This document shows, piece by piece, positions 12,359 to 22,395 of a DNA stretch of 46,051 bases. A program made the position numbers and the translations under genes. The first letter of the stretch is position 1; the number at the start of each line of letters is the position of its first letter. The stretch spans positions 1 to 46,051 of the forward strand of contig CAMAUC010000019.1 of NCBI GenBank assembly GCA_945861265.1, written 5' to 3'. Below the pieces are notes generated by a model. The model searched no databases and was not told where the DNA came from. It saw only the letters and a list, made by a program, of their open reading frames with translations. This DNA is from Rhizobium sp. Q54. Its GTDB lineage: Bacteria > Pseudomonadota > Alphaproteobacteria > Rhizobiales > Xanthobacteraceae.

Positions 12359-12386
12359 GGCTTTGGATCAATGGCTTTGGATCAAT
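12359..12386. repeat. 14-bp unit in two exact tandem copies
   Basis: The unit GGCTTTGGATCAAT occurs twice in direct contact and continues with GGC. The second copy contains the stop codon (TGA, minus strand) of otsA, so the duplication straddles the gene end. It probably arose by slippage. Confidence 0.8.
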
Positions 12387-13785
12387 GGCCGTCCGGCAAT
12401 GCTCCCGACGCTGCGCCCCGGGGCCTTTCCAGCACGCCGAGAAAGCGCTCCGCCCACTGGCTCAGATCGTTCTGCTTTAAAACGCGATAATTGGCGGCGT
12501 GCCGTTGCACGCGCTCGTCGAGCGGCATCGCCAGAGCGCGATCGATGGCGATGGCGACGCCTTCGGAATCGTAAGGATTGACCAGCAAGGCGGCGCTGCA
12601 TTCGCGCGCAGCGCCGGCAAAGCGCGACAGGATCAGCACGCCGGGATCGTCCGGGTTTTGCGCCGCGATGTATTCCTTCGCCACCAGATTCATGCCGTCC
12701 CGCAGTGGCGTCACCAGGCCGGCGCGCGCGGCGCGATACAGCCCGGCAAGCGCGGTGCGTCTATGCGCCTTGTTGATGTAACGCACAGGCGTCCACGAAG
12801 CCTCGCCATAGGCGCCGTTGATGCGTCCGACTTTTTCGCCGACTTGCCGGCCGAGATTGGCATATTCCTCGATATCGGTCCGGCTGCGCGGCGTGATCTG
12901 CAAATAGGTCACCTGGCCGCGCCAACGCGGAAAATTGGTCAGCAACCGTTCGAATGCATCCATGCGCTCAGGGATGCCCTTGCTGTAATCGAGCCGGTCG
13001 ACGCCGATGATCATCGCGCGTCCCGACAGGCTGCCCATCACCTCGCGCACGAAGGTGGAATCGACGGCGCGGCGCGCCAATCGCTGGAATGCATCGGTCT
13101 CGACGCCGACCGGAAAAACACCGAGCCGCACATCGCCTTCGTCGAAGGCAAAACTGTCGGCGTCGAGCCGCCGCAAGCCGCGCTCGTTGGCGAGATAACG
13201 GGCGAAATTGGCGGCGTCGGTCTCGGTCTGGAAGCCAACCAAATTGTAATAGCCGAGCGACGGGATGAGTTGCTCGTGATTGGGCAGCGCCGTCACGATT
13301 TCTTCCGGCGGAAACGGAACATGGATGAAGAAGCCGATTTTGTTCTTGTGCCCGCGCTCGCGCAACGCCTTGGCCAGCGGCATCAAATGATAGTCATGCA
13401 CCCAGATGACGTCGTCCGGACGCAATATCTTCTCCAGATTTTTGGCGAAAAACCCATTGACCCTGAAGTAGCCGCCAAGATCACGGCGCGTGAATTCGGC
13501 GAGATCGAGCCGGTAGTGCAGGATCGGCCACAACACGCGGTTGGCAAAGCCGTTGTAGAATTCCTCGTAATCGTCCTTTTGCAGATCGACCGTGACATAG
13601 GACACGTTGTCCTTGTCGAGTGTCCGCGCCGGCTCCGGCGCGCCGTCGGACACACGTCCGCTCCAGCCGAACCAGACGCCGCCGCGCCGTTTGAGCGCCG
13701 GACGAATAGCAACCTCCAGCCCGCCGGCGCGCGCGCTGCCATCAGGTATGCCAACTCGGTTGGAAACTACGACGAGCCGCGCCAA
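12382..13785 (-). CDS. otsA: trehalose-6-phosphate synthase (GT20)
   Basis: A 467-residue retaining glycosyltransferase making trehalose-6-phosphate from UDP-glucose and glucose-6-phosphate. Family blocks are all present: VVVSNRVG at the N-terminus, [54 protein letters not shown] and the UDP-glucose site [18 protein letters not shown]. No ATG precedes the conserved N-terminus. A TTG at 13785 preceded by GGGGAG (seven-base spacing) gives [12 protein letters not shown], the expected start. It overlaps the upstream GH15 gene by 19 bp, which implies translational coupling. Confidence 0.95.
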
Positions 13786-15563
13786 TACCGGTCTCCCCAA
13801 CTGCGTGACAATTTCATCGCGCTCATGATCAATCCGGCCATCGAATAGGTTTGCGGGAAATTCCCCCACAGCTTTCCGGTCGCCGGATGAATGTCCTCGG
13901 ACAACAGACCGTAACGGTTTCGCATTTTCAGGGCATCGACGAACATGTCGCGGGCTTCGTCGTGCCGCCCGATTTCCCACAACGCATCGACCAGCCAGAA
14001 GCGGCAGATAAGAAAGGCCGTCTCCGGCATGCCGAAATCGTCGGCGGCGACATAACGCATGACGTGATGGCCGCGCCGCAGCTCGCGTTCGATCGCCTCG
14101 ACGGTGGCGACAAAGCGCGGATCGTCGGCGGCGACCAGACCGAGTTCGGACAAGAGCAGCGAGCTGGCATCGAGATCGTCGCCGCCGAAAGCGCCGGAGA
14201 ATGCATTGCGCTTGGCGTTCCACGCCCGCTGCGTAATCTCGTCTCCGAGCCGCATGGCATTGCCGCGCCAGTACGCGGCGCGATCGGCAAGACCGAGATG
14301 GTCGGCAATGGCTTCAAGCCGCTGACATCCGGCCCAGCACATCGCCGCCGAATGCGTATGCACCTGCTGGCGGCCGCGAAATTCCCAGATGCCCGCATCG
14401 GGTTCAAGTGCCAGCCTGGCTGCCTGCTCGCCGAGCGGCTCCAGCGAGCGGAACAGCGCGACGTCGCCGGGCTTCGGCAGCCGGCGGTCGAAAAACATCG
14501 GCGTCGCGGCAAGGATGATACTGCCGTAAACATCGTGCTGCGTCTGATGCACGGCGGCATTGCCGATACGCACCGGCCCGTCGCCGCCATAGCCGGCAAG
14601 CGCGGGTGCGACCCACTCCTCCAGCCTGTCGGTGTGGACGATGCCGTAAAGCGGCCGGATGGTATCGGCGCGCCCGGTCGATATGCTCAGGATGTAGGAG
14701 ATGAACTCTTCCATCGTCCGCGTCGCGCCGATGCGGTTTAGTGCACTGACAACAAAGAATGCATCGCGCAGCCAGCAGTAGCGATAATCCCAGGTGCGTC
14801 CCGATCCCGGGCCTTCCGGAATCGACGTGGTGAGCGCGGCGACGATCGCGCCGGTTTCCTCGAAATTGCACAGCTTGAGCGTGATGGCGGCGCGGATGAT
14901 CTCGTCCTGCCAGTCGATGGAGAAGGCCAGCCGGCGCACCCACTCCTGCCAGTAGTCGAGCGTGCGCCGGTAAAGATCGCGGCACGTGCTCTCAAGCGCG
15001 TGCTCGAACGGCTCGTCGGTGCCGAACACCATATGCACGGGCCTTGTCAGCACGAACGAGGCTTCGTTCTCGATCTGCGAGATCGCCGCGTCCGTTGTGA
15101 GACGCACCGGCACCTCGTCGCGCCAGAAGCGGATATGATTGCTGCCGGTCGAGCGCTGCTCGACCGGCGCGCCGTGCCGATGCGTGACGCGGAAGCGGAT
15201 GGTGATGCGCGGCATGCCGGCGATCGGCTCGACGATGCGCACCAGCTGCGGCGGCCGGAAGGTGCGGCCGAAATTCTGGAAGCGCGGCGCGAAATCGGTC
15301 ACGCGCACCTTGCCGCCCTTGCTGTCGGTCAACTCGGTCACGACCATGGCGGTGTTGCGAATATAATTCGACGTGGATTCGACCTGATCGTCGAGCATCA
15401 CATCGGTGAAGCCTTTTTCCTCGTCGCCCGACAGCAGCCGGCAAAACACCGGATCGCCGTCATAGCGCGGCAGGCACCACCACAAAATCCGTGCGTCCGG
15501 ATTGACCAGGGCGGCGGTGCGCCCATTGCCGATCACGGCGATATCGAGCCCGTAATCCGTCAT
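13767..15563 (-). CDS. GH15 family glycoside hydrolase (glucoamylase/trehalase-like)
   Basis: A 598-residue protein with an N-terminal beta-sandwich (about 1-210) and a GH15 (alpha/alpha)6 barrel. Diagnostic blocks are RTWDYRYCWLRDAFF, HTHSAAMCWAG, LSEDIHPATGKLWGNFPQ and a substrate-site GHHVMRYVAADDFG. GH15 members hydrolyse terminal alpha-glucosidic bonds; some bacterial ones act on trehalose. No signal peptide is seen, so it is cytosolic. Its place between otsB and otsA, 11 bp after otsB and overlapping otsA, suggests trehalose or glucan turnover linked to trehalose synthesis. Whether it is a trehalase is inference from context. Confidence 0.9.
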   Translation of the reverse strand: MTDYGLDIAVIGNGRTAALVNPDARILWWCLPRYDGDPVFCRLLSGDEEKGFTDVMLDDQVESTSNYIRNTAMVVTELTDSKGGKVRVTDFAPRFQNFGRTFRPPQLVRIVEPIAGMPRITIRFRVTHRHGAPVEQRSTGSNHIRFWRDEVPVRLTTDAAISQIENEASFVLTRPVHMVFGTDEPFEHALESTCRDLYRRTLDYWQEWVRRLAFSIDWQDEIIRAAITLKLCNFEETGAIVAALTTSIPEGPGSGRTWDYRYCWLRDAFFVVSALNRIGATRTMEEFISYILSISTGRADTIRPLYGIVHTDRLEEWVAPALAGYGGDGPVRIGNAAVHQTQHDVYGSIILAATPMFFDRRLPKPGDVALFRSLEPLGEQAARLALEPDAGIWEFRGRQQVHTHSAAMCWAGCQRLEAIADHLGLADRAAYWRGNAMRLGDEITQRAWNAKRNAFSGAFGGDDLDASSLLLSELGLVAADDPRFVATVEAIERELRRGHHVMRYVAADDFGMPETAFLICRFWLVDALWEIGRHDEARDMFVDALKMRNRYGLLSEDIHPATGKLWGNFPQTYSMAGLIMSAMKLSRSWGDRYWRGSS

Positions 15564-15574
15564 GCGATTTTAAA

Positions 15575-16360
15575 TTACTCATAGCGGGCGAGCTGCCGCA
15601 GGGCCCGGCGAACCTGAGCCGGAGAGGAGAAAATGCCCGACAGCCCGGAAAAGTTCCGTCCAACCGAAAAACCTTTGCCGCCCAACGCCGGCAACGCCAC
15701 GAAAGCCGCCTCGTCGGTCACGTCGTCGCCGATAAACACCGGCATTCGGCCGCGAAATGGCGCTTGCATCATGAGCGCGCGCACGCCGTCGCCTTTATTG
15801 ATGCCGGGGCGCTTCACCTCGACCATGGCCTTGCCCAGCAGCACCTCGGTCGGCTCCGCGGCAAACGCGGCGCGGCTGGCCTCGACATGGGCGCGCAACC
15901 GGTCTTCCTGTTGCGGCGCCCGGCGGTAATGCAGCGCCACCGAGTAGCCCTTGTCCTCGAAGTCGATACCGGAGCCCGGCGTCGCCGCATCGGTCAGGTG
16001 GCGTCGCATATCGCTCGGCAGATCGTCGATGCGCGAGGCCGCGGCGCCGGCAATGCGCAATTCGGCACCGTGGCCGCCGACCGACGACAAACGCAGCGGT
16101 GCGAAAAGAATGTCGAGATCGCGGATCGGCCGCCCGCTGACCAGCGCCAGCGCGCCGCCGGTCAATCGATCGAGCGCGGCCAGATCGTGCTTGAGCGTAT
16201 CCGGCACATCGACATCGAACGGCGACGGCCCGATGTCGATCAAGGTGCCGTCAACATCGAGGAGGAGCGCGATCGCTCCGGGATCGAATTTGGCAAATTC
16301 GTCCAATGCAGAATTGTTGGCCTGGCAGTCGGCGGTATCGTTCGCAGTGGATTGAGTCAC
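15575..16360 (-). CDS. otsB: trehalose-6-phosphate phosphatase
   Basis: A 261-residue HAD-superfamily phosphatase removing phosphate from trehalose-6-phosphate. HAD motif I is LLLDVDGTLIDI (about residues 32-43; nucleophile Asp and acid Asp), motif II is LALVSGRPIRDLD, the conserved Lys is in KRPGINKGDG, and motif III/IV is PVFIGDDVTDEAAF. A start GTG at 16360 is preceded by GGAAGG. It lies 25 bp after the exported-protein gene and 11 bp before GH15 in the same transcription unit. Confidence 0.94.
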   Translation of the reverse strand: MTQSTANDTADCQANNSALDEFAKFDPGAIALLLDVDGTLIDIGPSPFDVDVPDTLKHDLAALDRLTGGALALVSGRPIRDLDILFAPLRLSSVGGHGAELRIAGAAASRIDDLPSDMRRHLTDAATPGSGIDFEDKGYSVALHYRRAPQQEDRLRAHVEASRAAFAAEPTEVLLGKAMVEVKRPGINKGDGVRALMMQAPFRGRMPVFIGDDVTDEAAFVALPALGGKGFSVGRNFSGLSGIFSSPAQVRRALRQLARYE

Positions 16361-16385: not shown

Positions 16386-17426
16386 TTATTGCGCCATCAC
16401 TTCGACGTCACCATCGACCCCGGTGACAACCTTGAATTCTCGCTCGAACACCTTGCCTTCGTTGCGGGCGATGGCGCGATATTCGCCTTCGCCGAGCACA
16501 ACGCGCGGAAACGCACCGATCGATTCCTTGATGACGTCGCCGCCGGGAGTCAGCACCGACCAAGCCGTGTTTGCTAACGCCTCGCCGCCCTTTTCGTTCA
16601 CCAGCTTGAGCGTGATGACGGCGGCGCGGTGATTGACGACGATATCGGTGAGCTTGCCAGCCTGCACCCTGATGTCGGAGCGCACCTGCGAATTGGCGTC
16701 GCCATAGTTCGACACGATGTAATAAAGCCCTTCCGGCACCATCACCACCGCGCCGGTCATCACATGTTCGGCGATCGGCCGGCGGTCGCCGGCCTCGAAC
16801 TGGCTGCCTTTATAGACGTCGAACGAAATCTGGCCGGCGGGGATCGTCACGTCGCCGACGCGGCCTTCAATGCGCAGGCCGCCGGCCGGCAGATCGAAAT
16901 CCTCGCGCACGGTCGCGCCGCGCAAGGCCACAGGCTTCACCGCGGTGGCGAGGCCGAAGCCGACATGGACAATGTAATTGCCGGATGGCAGCACCAATGT
17001 CGGCGCGGCGGTTTTATCTTCGCGGATCAGCTTGAACGCGCCGCCGGGCTCGGCTTTGCCGGCATAGATGCGCCAGGTCAGACCGCCGGCGATCGGCGGC
17101 GCGTCCTTGCCGAAGCGCGCCGACAGCGAAAGCGCAACCTGGCCGGCCGGCACCATGGGCGTCGGCGGCGGCATCACCATCGGCGTCGCCTGCTGCGGCG
17201 GCGCGGGCGGCGGCGGCACGCCGCCGCCCGGACCGAAGCCCTCGCCGCGGATGGCCGAATTGGGCGACAGCAGCCCGGTCGATGGCGAGGATGAAAACAG
17301 CGAGCCGCCGGACTGCGCCCGGGCCTCGCCGGGACAAATCGCCGCGAAGGCCGCGACCATAAGGCCAGCCCAAACGAATTGCCGGGGCCGGCCGGAAAGA
17401 GCGGCGATTGCGGATGGGCGCGTCAT
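16386..17426 (-). CDS. exported protein of unknown function with Pro-rich linker
   Basis: A 346-residue protein with a signal peptide (about 1-38, ending ARAQ). A Pro/Gly-rich linker with runs such as GGGVPPPPAPP (about 65-95) leads to beta-rich repeats that look like carboxypeptidase-regulatory or transthyretin-like beta sandwiches (for example LPSGNYIVHVGFG and VPEGLYYIVSNYGD). No catalytic motif is seen. Similar exported proteins of unknown role are common in this bacterial group. It is the first gene of a run with otsB, GH15 and otsA, with only 25 bp to otsB, so it may be co-expressed with trehalose synthesis. Confidence 0.7.
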   Translation of the reverse strand: MTRPSAIAALSGRPRQFVWAGLMVAAFAAICPGEARAQSGGSLFSSSPSTGLLSPNSAIRGEGFGPGGGVPPPPAPPQQATPMVMPPPTPMVPAGQVALSLSARFGKDAPPIAGGLTWRIYAGKAEPGGAFKLIREDKTAAPTLVLPSGNYIVHVGFGLATAVKPVALRGATVREDFDLPAGGLRIEGRVGDVTIPAGQISFDVYKGSQFEAGDRRPIAEHVMTGAVVMVPEGLYYIVSNYGDANSQVRSDIRVQAGKLTDIVVNHRAAVITLKLVNEKGGEALANTAWSVLTPGGDVIKESIGAFPRVVLGEGEYRAIARNEGKVFEREFKVVTGVDGDVEVMAQ

Positions 17427-17502: not shown

Positions 17503-17527
17503 AAAAGCCCGGCCCCAAGGGGCCGGC
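17503..17527 (-). terminator. terminator of the cheW/CA/MCP operon
   Basis: On the minus strand CCGGCCCC-TT-GGGGCCGG forms an 8-bp GC stem, followed by GGCTTTTCC. It lies about 75 bp after the MCP stop and before the next minus-strand gene, so it separates the chemotaxis operon from the trehalose operon. Confidence 0.7.
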
Positions 17528-17600: not shown

Positions 17601-19706
17601 CTAGAATTCCTTCCAGTCCTCGGCTTTGACGGCGGTCGCAAGCTGGGTACGCATCTGCTGCACCGGACCACCGCGATTGCCGCGCGGCTCGCCAGCCGGG
17701 CCGGCTTTCGTGACGGCGGCCATCGGGGCCGGCTTGGCCTTGACGGCGGTGTCGCGCGCCGGCTGGTTGGCCATCGCGGCAGGAGCTGCGAATTCGCCGG
17801 CGCCGCCGATCTGGAAGAAGGCCACCTGCTCGTCCATCGCCTTGGCCTGGAATTCCAGGGTCTTGGCGGTGGCGGCGTTTTCTTCGACCAGAGCCGAGTT
17901 CTGCTGGGTGACTTCATCCATCTGGGTGAGCGCCTTGTTGATCTGCTCGATGCCGGTCGCCTGCTCGATCGAGGCATTGGCGATGTCGGAGACGACCGCC
18001 GCCACCTTGTTGATCGATTCGACGATCTCGGTGAGCGACTCGCCGGCCTTGTTGACCAGTTCGACGCCGTCCTTGACCTGGCCGTTCGAGTTGGTGATCA
18101 GGTCCTTGATGTCCTTGGCCGCCTGCGACGAACGCTGCGCCAGGCTGCGGACTTCAGAGGCCACCACCGCGAAGCCACGACCCGCATCGCCGGCCCGCGC
18201 CGCTTCCACCGCCGCGTTGAGCGCCAGCAAGTTAGTCTGGCGGGCGATTTCATCGATGACGCCGATGATGTCGGAGATCTTGCGCGAGGATTCTTCGATC
18301 TTCGCCATGGCATCGACAGCCTTGGCGACGATCTGGCCGCCGCGGTTGGCGACGTCGCGGGTCTGGTTAGCGTCGGTATTCGCCATTTGCGCGTTTTCGG
18401 AGTTCTTCCTCACGGTCGCCGACAGCTCTTCCATCGCCGCTGAAGTCTCTTCCAGGCCGGCGGCCTGCTCCTCGGTGCGCTGCGACAGGTCGGTGGTGCT
18501 TGTCGAGATTTCGGCCGAGGCGTTGGTGACCTCGCGGCCCGAGGATTTTATCGCGCTGATGGTCGAAGAAACCTTCTCCGCCATCAGTTGGACCGCATCG
18601 GCGATCTGCCCGACTTCGTCTTTGCGCCCAAGCCCCGGCACCTCGATCGAGAAGTTGCCGCTCGCAATCGTCTCCAATGGAGCGACCAAGGCGGTGATCG
18701 GTTTGGCAATGCCGCGGCCGATCAACCAAGCGAGTAACGCGCCGATAACCAGGCCGCCGATCGCCATCGCCGCGATAAGCCACTGCACGCTGGTCATGAG
18801 TGTCTCCGCGGACTCTTCCTCTTTCGACGCCAGTTCGCTCGTCGCGAGCTTGATGTCGGTGACGATCGACGCAATTTGTCCGCCAAGCTTCTTCATCTCG
18901 CCGTTCAACAAAACGTCGATCTCGTGCGCGTCGGCGGCGGCCTTGGTGTAGCCGGCGTTGTATTTCTCGGACAGCACCTTGATCTCTTCGAACAGCTTGC
19001 GGGCGTCACCGGTCGTGGCGGCGTCGAGGCCCGTCATGACAGACTTCAAGTCGGCAAAGGCCTTGCTGGCCGCGTCGGCGGACGCCTGGTCGTGCCGCGC
19101 CAGGACCTTGTTGACGCTTAACCGCGCCAGCATGACATGCTTGAGCCCTTCGCCCGCCAGCGTCAGCATGGTGCCGTTGCCGGTCTTGGCCGCGGCGGCC
19201 TGGAGAGCCTCGAAATCCGCGCGCAACTTGAGACCGCTCGGGTCGAGAACGTCGTTGACGAGCGCGGCCTCCTCCTGCCGCAACGTCACCACCTTCTCGA
19301 AATCGGCTTTCCACGTGGCCGCCTGCTTCTTTACCTCGGCAATCTTCTGCTTGCGATCCGGATTCGTTACCGACGCCTCGACCATCTGGATCGCTTCAAA
19401 CAGCGTCACCAGCCCCTGCCGGGCGCTTTCAAGAAATGCCTTCTCGCCGGTCAGTCCGAACTCGCGCGCCTGCCAGCGAGCGAACAACAAGGAGCGGTCG
19501 ACCGCCGCCGCGCGCGTGCTGTTGGCGGACTGACGCGCAAACTCCCTGAAGCCGTGCTCCACACTGCTGAAAGCCAGATAGGCCGTTCCGGAAATAAACG
19601 CCGTGATCGCGAGCACGACGGCAAAGCCGATAGCAATCTTGGTGGCAATTTTACGGTTGGTAAAGAGACCGGTCAGGCCGCGGCTCTGAGTGGATTCATA
19701 AGACAT
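17601..19706 (-). CDS. methyl-accepting chemotaxis protein with large helical periplasmic sensor
   Basis: A 701-residue chemoreceptor. TM1 is about residues 24-47; a periplasmic all-helical region of about 260 residues follows, the size of a helical bimodular (HBM) sensor rather than a 4-helix bundle; TM2 is about 309-330; HAMP is 331-384. The signalling tip carries [20 protein letters not shown]. The last five residues are DWKEF, matching the x-W-x-x-F tether that recruits CheR/CheB. It is the last gene of an operon with cheW and an alpha-carbonic anhydrase, 18 bp after the latter. The ligand is unknown; known HBM receptors bind small carboxylates. Confidence 0.95.
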
Positions 19707-19724
19707 AAGGTCAATCCTTCTGGA

Positions 19725-20519
19725 TCAGTTCGATTGAATGATGAAGCGGTGGTTGCGGCTCTGGACAGGCCGCGCATTGTTCGGAAACAACTGGGCAAAC
19801 TGTTTGATCTGTTCGGCAGACGCTTCGATCGGCTCTCTGAACACCGTCCAGGTCAGGCCTTCGGAACACGGCGGCGTCGTCAGCGAGCCCATGTAGCGGA
19901 AGTAGCCAGGCGCCTTCGGCAACAGACCGTTCGGATCGATCGATCCGGCAACGCGCTGCTCCGGCCCCTCGGTCTTCGGCATGGCATCGAAGATCGATTG
20001 CAAAGCCGAGTTCTTCTCGCCGGGCTTCACGAACACGCCGACAACCGCGAGATTCCCCGTACTCGACTTGTGCACGAAGTGGCATTCCAGATCGAAAGGC
20101 TTGCCGGCCAGCAAGTGCTCGCTCGGATGATGGAAGTGAAACTGCAGCAATTCGTATTTGGCGCCGCCGATCGTGCAGGATGAACCGGCGTCGGCATTCA
20201 CCTGGATGGTATGGCCGTTGTTCAAGATGCGCAGCGGCAGCGGCTTATAGTTGAGCGCCACCGCACCTGCCTCGCCGTTCATCGCATTGGCCAGATCGAC
20301 CGGCGTCTGTTCGAGACCGAGCTGACAGACTTTGAAATCCGGCTGCAGCTCTCCCCAATGTTCGGCGCCGGTGTCTCCGGCATAGCTCCAATGCGGCGCC
20401 GCGTGACCCGCCGGTCCGGCGGCATGCGGAGTCTCGGAGGCGCCGGCATAGCCGGCTGCGAGGCAGCAAGCGCAGCCCAGCGTGGCGGTGCGAAGAAAAT
20501 GGCGTCGATTGAGTTGCAC
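19725..20519 (-). CDS. exported alpha-class carbonic anhydrase
   Basis: A 264-residue alpha-carbonic anhydrase. The three zinc histidines are H128 and H130 in LLQFHFHHPSEH and H147 in LECHFVHK; the Thr199-equivalent block is SLTTPPCSEGLTWTVF, and C65/C218 are placed as the usual disulfide. The N-terminus NRRHFLRTA followed by a hydrophobic stretch is a Tat-type signal, so the folded enzyme is exported to the periplasm. It interconverts CO2 and bicarbonate plus H+. GTG start at 20519, with AAGGA nine bases upstream. It sits between cheW (12 bp away) and a chemoreceptor gene (18 bp), an unusual setting. Confidence 0.95.
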   Translation of the reverse strand: MQLNRRHFLRTATLGCACCLAAGYAGASETPHAAGPAGHAAPHWSYAGDTGAEHWGELQPDFKVCQLGLEQTPVDLANAMNGEAGAVALNYKPLPLRILNNGHTIQVNADAGSSCTIGGAKYELLQFHFHHPSEHLLAGKPFDLECHFVHKSSTGNLAVVGVFVKPGEKNSALQSIFDAMPKTEGPEQRVAGSIDPNGLLPKAPGYFRYMGSLTTPPCSEGLTWTVFREPIEASAEQIKQFAQLFPNNARPVQSRNHRFIIQSN

Positions 20520-20531
20520 GGGCTAGATTCC

Positions 20532-21065
20532 TTACTGTTCGGATAAATCGGAAGACGTCACTCGCGCGGAATGCAAATCCGGCAACGACAGCAGGTTAGG
20601 CAAATCGATCAGGGCGATCATGACGTCGTCATGGGTCACGATGCCGGCCAGGAAACTCGCCGCGTCCGACCCGCCGGTGCGCGGCACCTTCTGGATCTGG
20701 GCGGCTTCGATCGTCACGATGTCGAGCACGCGGTCGCCGATCAGGCCAACCTGCCGTCCGCCGATCTGCACGATAATGACGATATGCAGCGGCGTGGTTT
20801 CGGTCAGGCCCTGGCCGAAGCGGCAGCGCAGATCGACGATCGGCACGATGGCGCCGCGCAGATCGAGTACACCGCGCACATAATCTGGCTGCTTCGGCAA
20901 ATGGGTGATGTCGGTCCAGCCCTTGATCTCTCGAACCGCCATGATGTCGACGCCGTACTGGTCGTTGCCGATGGCGAAACTGACGAACTGGGTCTGTCCG
21001 GCGGCAGCGGCCGAGCCGGCCCATGTCGCGCTGGAAGTGTTGGAAGCAACGGCGTGCTGGTGCAT
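20532..21065 (-). CDS. cheW: CheW chemotaxis coupling protein
   Basis: A 177-residue CheW protein that links receptors to the CheA kinase. The two SH3-like subdomains are recognisable from FVSFAIGNDQYGVDIMAVRE, the conserved VRGVLDLRGAIVPIVDL block and VGLIGDRVLDIVTI. The N-terminal 25 residues are an Ala/Ser-rich extension. Start ATG 21065 follows GAGG; an upstream ATG at 21143 would add 26 unrelated residues. First gene of the operon with alpha-CA and MCP. No cheA, cheY, cheB or cheR lies in this window, so the module must use kinase machinery encoded elsewhere. Confidence 0.95.
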   Translation of the reverse strand: MHQHAVASNTSSATWAGSAAAAGQTQFVSFAIGNDQYGVDIMAVREIKGWTDITHLPKQPDYVRGVLDLRGAIVPIVDLRCRFGQGLTETTPLHIVIIVQIGGRQVGLIGDRVLDIVTIEAAQIQKVPRTGGSDAASFLAGIVTHDDVMIALIDLPNLLSLPDLHSARVTSSDLSEQ

Positions 21066-21321: not shown

Positions 21322-22395
21322 ATGTCAAAACCACTCGCTACAAGTGTCGTGAAATTTGCAAATGAAGAGTGGCAACTTGCAACTACGCTGCGGGCATCGC
21401 TGATCAGCCACGCACTGAGACACATGAGCCACCTCAACGCCTTTACCGTTGCCAGCACGCGACACATCGACGAGATGCGTGGCATCCTGTTCGATGTTTA
21501 CGACGCCCGGCTTTTCGATCTGCACGGCGACGGCAACCGCTTTGCGGCGAAGGCGGCCTATTTTCGTTTCGGTTCGTCGAACCTTTCCTATTGCGCGCAT
21601 CAGGCGCCGGTGCGCATCGAATTCCGCGAGGACGACTACATCCGCTTCCAGGTCTGCACAGCTGGCAACGGCCGCACTGTCATCGGCGGCGCACCGGTCG
21701 GCGTCGACGAGAAAAGCATCGTCTGCTCGCCATCGAATTCGGCCATGGAATTCGGTCCCTCACTGGAGCAGTTTTCGTTGCGGGTCAGCCGCACGGTCCT
21801 GGAGGAGGATCTGACGATCTTGCTTGGGGCGCGCCCCAAGCAAGCGCTTGCCTTCGCATCGACTGCCGACTGCAATATCGGCAGCACATTGCGGCTGCGT
21901 GAAAAGATCATTTACGTCGCCAACAGCATCGACGTTTCGGACGACCCCATTCCGGCGCCCATGCTGCGCGAGATGGATCGCATGATCCGCATCTCAACGC
22001 TTTATGGCATGCCGAACAACTACAGCGAGCGCCTCTATGCGGCCGAGCCGGCCTCCGCGCCATGGCAGGTCAAGAGGGTCGAGGAATGGATCGACCCGCA
22101 TTGGCGCGACGAGGTGACAATCGACCAACTGGCCGAGGTTTCCGGTTCAAGCGTGCGCAGTATCTTTGCCACCTTCAAGGCGGCGCGCGGCTATACGCCG
22201 ATGGCCTATCTCAAGCGCGTCCGCCTGCACGCGGCGCGCGGCATGCTGCTGGTCGCGCAGCCGGGCGCGTCGGTGACCGCCATTGGCCTAGCCTGCCAGT
22301 TCGCCAATCTCGGTCATTTCGCGTGCGACTATCAGGAGCAGTTCGGCGAATTGCCGTCGGCGACCTTGCAGAAAGCGCGAGCCCTCGCCGCATAA
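21322..22395 (+). CDS. AraC-family transcriptional regulator
   Basis: A 357-residue regulator. The N-terminal 220 residues look like the AraC_binding_2 type sensing domain (EFGPSLEQFSLRVSRTVLEE). The C-terminal double helix-turn-helix spans about 245-355: VTIDQLAEVSGSSVRSIFATF (helix 1 region) and a second unit with AIGLACQFANLGHFACDYQEQFG. Start ATG 21322 has no strong RBS; an alternative is ATG 21424 (MSHLNAFTVAS), close to the usual domain start. Divergent from the cheW operon with 256 bp between; it could control that operon, but no direct evidence exists. Confidence 0.88.
   Translation: MSKPLATSVVKFANEEWQLATTLRASLISHALRHMSHLNAFTVASTRHIDEMRGILFDVYDARLFDLHGDGNRFAAKAAYFRFGSSNLSYCAHQAPVRIEFREDDYIRFQVCTAGNGRTVIGGAPVGVDEKSIVCSPSNSAMEFGPSLEQFSLRVSRTVLEEDLTILLGARPKQALAFASTADCNIGSTLRLREKIIYVANSIDVSDDPIPAPMLREMDRMIRISTLYGMPNNYSERLYAAEPASAPWQVKRVEEWIDPHWRDEVTIDQLAEVSGSSVRSIFATFKAARGYTPMAYLKRVRLHAARGMLLVAQPGASVTAIGLACQFANLGHFACDYQEQFGELPSATLQKARALAA

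What the first reader, a model, noticed from the sequence alone, without database searches (positions are those of the whole stretch)
17601..21065. Chemotaxis operon containing an exported alpha-carbonic anhydrase
cheW, alpha-CA and a chemoreceptor lie in one minus-strand unit with gaps of 12 and 18 bp and a terminator after it. The CA has all three zinc histidines and a Tat signal, so it should work in the periplasm where the receptor's 260-residue sensor lies. A CO2-converting enzyme in the same transcript suggests a receptor for bicarbonate, pH or CO2, with the enzyme generating or equilibrating the ligand. I know of no described system of this form.
Basis: partly seen in the sequence, partly recalled or inferred. 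Interest (0 to 1): 0.85.

Follow-up and report, generated by a model that had tools for sequence, protein, structure and literature searches.

The report
Carbonic anhydrase paired with a chemoreceptor
A gene for an exported enzyme that interconverts CO2 and bicarbonate sits directly in front of a gene for a swimming-direction sensor, and the same pairing recurs in many bacterial families with two different forms of sensor, so these bacteria may use the enzyme to smell CO2, bicarbonate or acidity.

Summary
cheW (20532-21065), a periplasmic alpha-carbonic anhydrase (CA, 19725-20519) and a chemoreceptor (MCP, 17601-19706) form one minus-strand unit with gaps of 12 and 18 bp and a terminator-like hairpin. 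The genome carries a second copy of the trio; its CA is 83% identical. The conserved unit is CA followed by MCP; cheW was seen only in near relatives. No MCP signalling domain lies within 400 bp on the opposite strand. Two sensor architectures occur: a helical bimodular one (window; fold of McpS) and a single four-helix bundle, distantly alike in their first part. The five catalytic residues are intact in 40 of 41 linked CAs. Best reading: an enzyme-coupled receptor for the CO2/HCO3-/H+ system. The rival is a CA that docks on the receptor, as PstS does on CtpL. The ligand is untested; most relatives of the sensor examined have no CA beside them, and one linked CA has decayed. No listing that I saw names a paper on the pair.

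The parts
20532..21065 (-). cheW, 177 aa, ATG start; coupling protein, first gene of the unit
   Evidence: PF01584 E 4.3e-34; before the CA only in near relatives
19725..20519 (-). alpha-carbonic anhydrase, 264 aa, GTG start, twin-arginine leader, H128/H130/H147 zinc ligands
   Evidence: PF00194 E 3.6e-42; best PDB match 6im0 E 8.6e-66; catalytic residues aligned
17601..19706 (-). methyl-accepting chemotaxis protein, 701 aa; periplasmic helical bimodular-like sensor about residues 47-305, HAMP 328-379, MCP signal 446-600
17509..17526 (-). terminator-like hairpin 74 bp after the MCP stop codon
21066..21321 (.). intergenic stretch that should hold the promoter; divergent AraC-type regulator gene starts at 21322
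   Evidence: promoter itself not identified (one search lists no sigma-70-like site here)

Best explanation
The CA and the MCP are a two-gene chemosensory module. The CA is exported to the periplasm (shown as a leader sequence, not as location) and there interconverts CO2 and HCO3- plus H+ (inferred from intact catalytic residues). The receptor's periplasmic helical sensor then reads the product, bicarbonate or protons (inferred), and passes the signal through HAMP and the signalling tip to CheW and CheA (standard MCP knowledge). The enzyme is needed because uncatalysed CO2 hydration takes tens of seconds (recalled) while a swimming cell compares concentrations over a few seconds (recalled), so without CA a CO2 gradient could not be read through bicarbonate or pH. 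The result would be taxis in gradients of CO2, inorganic carbon or pH.
For: Pairing of CA and MCP far above chance: 5 of 31, 8 of 37 and 10 of 69 CA genes in the order, class and phylum samples (plus the window), with the MCP downstream in each of them; no MCP signalling domain on the opposite strand within 400 bp. Two sensor architectures sit behind the same enzyme, in scattered branches of the CA tree (15 changes over 198 rows). Three zinc His, Glu134 and Thr214 intact in 40 of 41 linked CAs; the residue in the His64 place is His in 39 of 41. Duplicated as a unit in this genome and in the Dongia contig L088; Skermanella stibiiresistens SB22 also holds two pairs (L087, L094). Deposited annotation of two Skermanella plasmids shows CA then HAMP-MCP with a 27-bp gap.
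Against: No ligand evidence. Of 60 regions fetched around relatives of the sensor, 4 hold a CA next to it (one of these, G373, has a stop in the CA frame and a receptor cut short), plus one decayed remnant in G443, so the sensor family does not need a CA neighbour. Genomes with high-scoring sensors but no adjacent CA include G561, G557, G460, G672 and G519. The two sensor types are alike in their first part (hhalign probability 95.9), so they are not independent witnesses in full. Periplasmic bicarbonate can also leak out through porins (recalled), so a local pool is not assured. This genome shows no RuBisCO large subunit (95.7% complete), so attraction to CO2 for fixation is not the likely reason.
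Confidence: 0.48

Rival explanations
1. The CA works as a periplasmic binding partner: in its CO2-, bicarbonate- or other-ligand-bound state it docks on the receptor's helical sensor, as PstS docks on CtpL and TorT on TorS. Catalysis would be secondary.
For: The window's sensor has the fold of McpS (TM-score 0.86 on the target, rmsd 2.6 A) and matches TorS-TorT complexes weakly (E 0.013). A CtpL homologue is listed as HBM-like (passage) and CtpL is stimulated by Pi-loaded PstS (passages of PMC4926252). The two CA-linked sensor types resemble each other in their first part, which could hold a shared docking site. In this genome a neighbouring unit has the same layout with a secreted sCache_2 protein in place of the CA (L033 11381-11839).
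Against: The catalytic set is intact in 40 of 41 linked CAs, more than a pure docking role needs. Column differences between linked and unlinked CAs exist (L67, V64, T225) but can be shared ancestry.
Confidence: 0.25
2. The CA is co-expressed for a general purpose, such as buffering the periplasm or handling CO2 under the conditions in which the receptor is made, and the receptor senses an organic acid.
For: Known helical bimodular receptors bind carboxylates such as malate and succinate (PDB titles). Most examined relatives of the sensor have no CA beside them, and in G443 the CA next to such a receptor has decayed.
Against: Does not explain why two sensor architectures in 14 families sit next to this enzyme, nor the absence of the opposite orientation.
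Confidence: 0.22
3. Chance or inherited neighbourhood without function.
For: Some repeats are inherited (Rhodopseudomonas, Hyphomicrobium and window form related branches), and the two sensor types may share an ancestor.
Against: Binomial tail 1.1e-6 (6 of 34, class) and 2.7e-7 (8 of 64, phylum) at an assumed 1% background, the own genome left out; 2.0e-3 in the order sample (3 of 25) (not corrected for kinship). The genome has 19 MCPs, so about 0.5% of genes (gene number assumed). Starred branches force at least 5 changes for type I and 4 for type II.
Confidence: 0.03

Closest known systems
CtpL-PstS phosphate chemotaxis of Pseudomonas aeruginosa (PMC4926252, passages)
   Same: A helical bimodular-like chemoreceptor that relies on a separate periplasmic protein
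   Different: PstS is a transport binding protein, not an enzyme, and there is no CA; whether the CA binds the receptor is unknown
TorS sensor with periplasmic TorT (PDB 3o1h, 3o1i)
   Same: Helical periplasmic sensor with a separate periplasmic partner
   Different: Histidine kinase, TMAO ligand, partner not an enzyme; similarity to the window's sensor is moderate (TM-score on target 0.43-0.53)
McpS-type HBM chemoreceptors (PDB 2yfa, 2yfb) and PcpI (PDB 9snn; PMC9543091, passages; same PcpI assumed from the name)
   Same: Same fold as McpS (TM-score on target up to 0.86) and detectable sequence similarity (McpS E 6e-6, ancestral PcpI E 4.7e-6)
   Different: McpS is solved with malate and succinate and PcpI mediates taxis to two plant hormones; no CA partner in what I saw
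Carbonic anhydrase with soluble adenylyl cyclase in animals (PMC3918592, abstract start seen)
   Same: CA couples CO2 to a bicarbonate-responsive signalling protein
   Different: Eukaryotic, intracellular, cAMP output; no evolutionary relation claimed
Helicobacter pylori TlpA (PMC8406319, abstract start seen)
   Same: Bacterial chemoreceptor reported to respond to bicarbonate and acid
   Different: dCache sensor; no CA pair mentioned in the part seen

Membership tests
alpha-carbonic anhydrase | Carb_anhydrase domain above curated cut-off | tested here: met
   145.2 bits against 27
alpha-carbonic anhydrase | three zinc histidines plus Glu and Thr gate | tested here: met
   H128, H130, H147, E134, T214
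alpha-carbonic anhydrase | CO2 hydration activity | not testable with these tools
   needs purified protein
methyl-accepting chemotaxis protein | MCP signalling domain with HAMP and membrane-spanning sensor | tested here: met
   domains; membrane helices read from the model
helical bimodular (HBM) sensor | Pfam HBM PF16591 above cut-off | tested here: not met
   window member 16.2 bits against 29.8; 8 of 23 members match at E <= 0.01
helical bimodular (HBM) sensor | fold of two stacked four-helix bundles | tested here: met
   model against McpS, TM-score on target 0.86; filed only as HBM-like
CHASE3 sensor | Pfam CHASE3 PF05227 above cut-off | tested here: met
   34.1 bits against 28, but only residues 65-159, and 11 of 23 members match at E <= 0.01; the two-bundle model fits McpS better
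partner-dependent chemoreceptor (CtpL-PstS kind) | periplasmic partner binds the sensor | not testable with these tools
   no two-chain prediction available; adjacency only
partner-dependent chemoreceptor (CtpL-PstS kind) | partner is a solute-binding protein | tested here: not met
   partner is an alpha-CA
CheW | CheW-like domain | tested here: met
   117.5 bits against 23.5

The most novel reading that the evidence does not exclude
A class of enzyme-coupled chemoreceptors spread over at least two classes of Pseudomonadota: a periplasmic carbonic anhydrase joined to helical sensors of two architectures, making a CO2/bicarbonate/pH sense in which the enzyme, not the receptor, provides the chemical specificity.
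Probability: 0.4. Interest if true: 0.9.

Novelty: new variant of a known kind. Interest (0 to 1): 0.77.

Why it matters
How bacteria sense CO2 in the environment by taxis is poorly known (my judgement). Here is a gene pair, present in cultured strains (Skermanella, Rhodopseudomonas, Hyphomicrobium), that makes the question testable with two deletions. If right, it would show a receptor that delegates ligand recognition to a dedicated enzyme, which differs from direct binding and from transport-protein docking. It would also offer a first clue to the signal of the CA-linked members of two sensor groups.

Tried and rejected
Trio as the conserved unit: rejected, since cheW is absent from most CA-MCP loci examined. 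A natural CA-MCP fusion: none among the ORFs of loci L001-L401. CA as a pseudo-enzyme: rejected, except in G405, where the CA-like protein has lost residues and the neighbour is an MCP-like protein that looks cytosolic by eye; I count it as linked but treat it as a separate oddity. Link to CO2 fixation: no RuBisCO large subunit found in this genome. The two sensor types as unrelated: I first thought so; a profile comparison aligns their first 143 columns with probability 95.9, E 5.4e-9, so I withdraw it, and for that reason moved the best explanation from 0.50 to 0.48, docking from 0.22 to 0.25 and the novel case from 0.42 to 0.40. The first nucleotide search of plasmids: of 1705 records with a match the 20 listed cover only about a fifth of the query, in the MCP gene. 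Literature searches gave no paper on the pair as judged from listings (titles, abstract starts); one listed 15 of 186 hits and 42 listed 25 of 75, the others all their hits. One search was for the HBM receptors. Papers read: passages of PMC9543091 and of PMC4926252; the rest only as listings.

Rows left out: one search dropped two short CA pieces (L187 and L211, the same G443 remnant) from the first tree; the second tree left out rows under 150 aa. The census needed a CA ORF of at least 100 bits, so 5 fragment places of the 36 are not counted. The window itself was not in the locus list of that script and is added by hand, which changes 4 of 30, 7 of 36 and 9 of 68 into 5 of 31, 8 of 37 and 10 of 69. 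CAs with under 600 bp downstream were called not assessable only if unlinked. Two linked loci of the class sample were accepted on the sensor alone: L185 (G373, receptor ORF ends after 354 aa) and L282 (G605, cut by the contig end). For some loci only 1500 bp of flank were held, so an MCP with a long sensor could be missed there.

Full report
What is there. On the minus strand lie cheW (20532-21065), an alpha-carbonic anhydrase (CA, 19725-20519) and a methyl-accepting chemotaxis protein (MCP, 17601-19706), with 12 and 18 bp between them. Pfam assigns each: CheW, Carb_anhydrase, and MCPsignal with HAMP plus a CHASE3 match somewhat over its cut-off on part of the sensor. A hairpin of seven G-C pairs followed by GCTTTT lies 74 bp after the MCP. 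An AraC-type regulator gene runs the other way from 21322.

The same genome holds it twice. The genome (3.75 Mb, 133 contigs, 95.7% complete) has two alpha-CA genes. The second lies in a second cheW-CA-MCP trio on contig C4, 78% identical in DNA, with the CA 83% and the MCP 79% identical. Upstream of that trio lie two further cheW-MCP units. In one of them a secreted-looking single-Cache protein (sCache_2, E 5.9e-15) takes the place of the CA between cheW and MCP (L033 11381-11839). The near relative L075 has the same arrangement. So these units follow a pattern: cheW, optional periplasmic protein, receptor.

The CA-MCP pair is the conserved unit. A scan of named genomes, many of them MAGs, with three CAs kept the best 80 of 338 relatives (79 loci). 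In 28 of 80 CA genes an MCP lies next to it on the same strand, 5 being not assessable; this set is chosen for similarity to the window's CA. In two of the 28 the MCP lies upstream (L101, L150). The 28 include Rhodopseudomonas, Hyphomicrobium, Skermanella, Dongia, Kiloniellaceae and Rhodospirillaceae loci. cheW precedes the CA only in L074, L075 and L076, besides the window and its paralogue. Deposited annotation of plasmids of Skermanella rosea and S. mucosa shows carbonic anhydrase followed by a HAMP-domain MCP with a 27-bp gap.

Unselected samples agree. CA searches of the order (31 of 297 genomes with a CA), class (31 of 385) and phylum (61 of 398) gave 36, 37 and 69 places. After leaving out five fragments in the order sample, the CA lies next to a same-strand MCP at 5 of 31 (4 not assessable), 8 of 37 (1) and 10 of 69 (3) (window added by hand). 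The samples overlap: all hold the own genome's two loci, and class and phylum share G405. Together they hold 18 linked loci in 15 genomes of 14 families. Three deserve caution: G405 (altered CA, odd partner), G373 (stop in the CA frame, receptor cut short) and G605 (receptor cut by the contig end). By the count, which needs the MCP signalling domain, no MCP lies within 400 bp on the opposite strand in any sample. With the own genome left out and a 1% background, the binomial tails are 2.0e-3 (3 of 25, order), 1.1e-6 (6 of 34, class) and 2.7e-7 (8 of 64, phylum). These tails ignore kinship. The 1% is twice the rate implied by 19 MCPs in this genome.

Two sensor architectures. Type I (window) is predicted as seven helices forming two stacked four-helix bundles (mean pLDDT 83.8). 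Foldseek ranks PilJ first by E-value and then McpS, the latter with TM-score 0.86 on the target and rmsd 2.6 A, and a sequence profile finds ancestral PcpI and McpS. The window member does not reach the Pfam HBM cut-off, so I call it HBM-like. Type II (L054, L055, L135/L282, L150 and, outside the window's class, L332, L333, L334, L335, L337, L348, L401) is a single four-helix bundle (mean pLDDT 80.7) rich in His, 7 to 15 per 175 residues in the nine aligned; its PDB matches are weak (best E 0.025). The two are not unrelated: a profile comparison aligns their first 143 columns, with the first membrane helix, at probability 95.9 and 15% identity. On a tree of 198 CAs the linked ones need 15 changes of state; starred branches force at least 5 for type I and 4 for type II. 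The tree search was short and many branches are weak, so the number of independent origins is uncertain; one old pairing with losses and sensor change is not excluded.

The enzyme looks active. Residues H128, H130, H147, E134 and T214 are intact in 40 of 41 linked CAs, and position 103, which matches the proton-shuttle His64 of human CA II by recall, is His in 39 of 41. The exception to the five is G405. Unlinked CAs have lost such residues more often (for example H147 in 11 of 144).

Evidence against a strict partnership. Type I sensors are a broad alphaproteobacterial family: 73 of 385 class genomes have a match at E <= 1e-10. I fetched 60 regions, some overlapping, around the best matches other than the own genome's; 4 hold a CA beside the receptor (one being G373), G443 holds a decayed 171-residue CA remnant, and the rest none, some being cut by contig ends. 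Of the 30 type II loci returned, 6 have a CA, all of them rows of the query; G737 C117, without a locus in that call, is a further case found outside the query. So a CA neighbour marks a subset of these receptors. G557, G460 and G672 hold a CA elsewhere in the genome.

How it may work. The best-supported reading is that the periplasmic CA converts CO2 to bicarbonate and protons next to a receptor that reads one of these. Spontaneous hydration is too slow for the seconds-long memory of chemotaxis (recalled), so the enzyme would set what the receptor can follow. The main rival is docking of the CA on the sensor. CtpL, a homologue of which is listed as HBM-like, is stimulated by Pi-loaded PstS with a 1:1 complex of 3.7 uM (passages of PMC4926252), and TorS binds TorT (PDB titles). 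Both readings keep the pair as a functional module, which I hold at about 0.9. The specific enzyme reading gets 0.48.

Novelty. Literature searches of open PubMed Central papers, judged from their listings, gave none that describes a CA-chemoreceptor pair; two of them listed only part of their hits. Subscription papers are mostly outside that library, so this is not proof of absence. As a kind it is a variant of partner-dependent chemoreception, with an enzyme as the partner.

Noticed in passing
L033 9604-12543 (own genome, contig C4): A cheW - secreted-looking sCache_2 protein - MCP unit with the same layout as the CA trio; also seen in L075. It suggests that solitary periplasmic Cache proteins may act as receptor partners.
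   Followed up: partly
window 12382-16360, minus strand: A glycoside hydrolase 15 / trehalase-like gene and trehalose-phosphatase, with an overlapping ORF 12382-14223 that reads like trehalose-6-phosphate synthase (not searched).
   Followed up: no
window 16386-17426, minus strand: A 346-residue secreted-looking protein with no Pfam or NCBIfam match at E <= 0.001, just downstream of the MCP terminator.
   Followed up: no
A6, window CA residues 16-19: The end of the CA leader peptide carries a frequent Cys-x-x-Cys (GCACC, ACPTC, CPLC), also in some CAs without an MCP; unexplained for a cleaved leader.
   Followed up: no
L187 (G443): CA decayed to a 171-residue remnant without the zinc core, directly upstream of a type I receptor that is still open.
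   Followed up: partly
L303 (G405): CA-like protein with altered zinc and gate residues next to an MCP-like protein without an evident sensor, in a 1.9-Mb genome.
   Followed up: partly
L401 (G737): Two CA genes in tandem followed by a type II MCP; this genome has five CA places.
   Followed up: no
L188 (G363): MCP with a near-repeat of a PAS-like stretch and a partial duplication in the signalling tip; may be an assembly fault.
   Followed up: no
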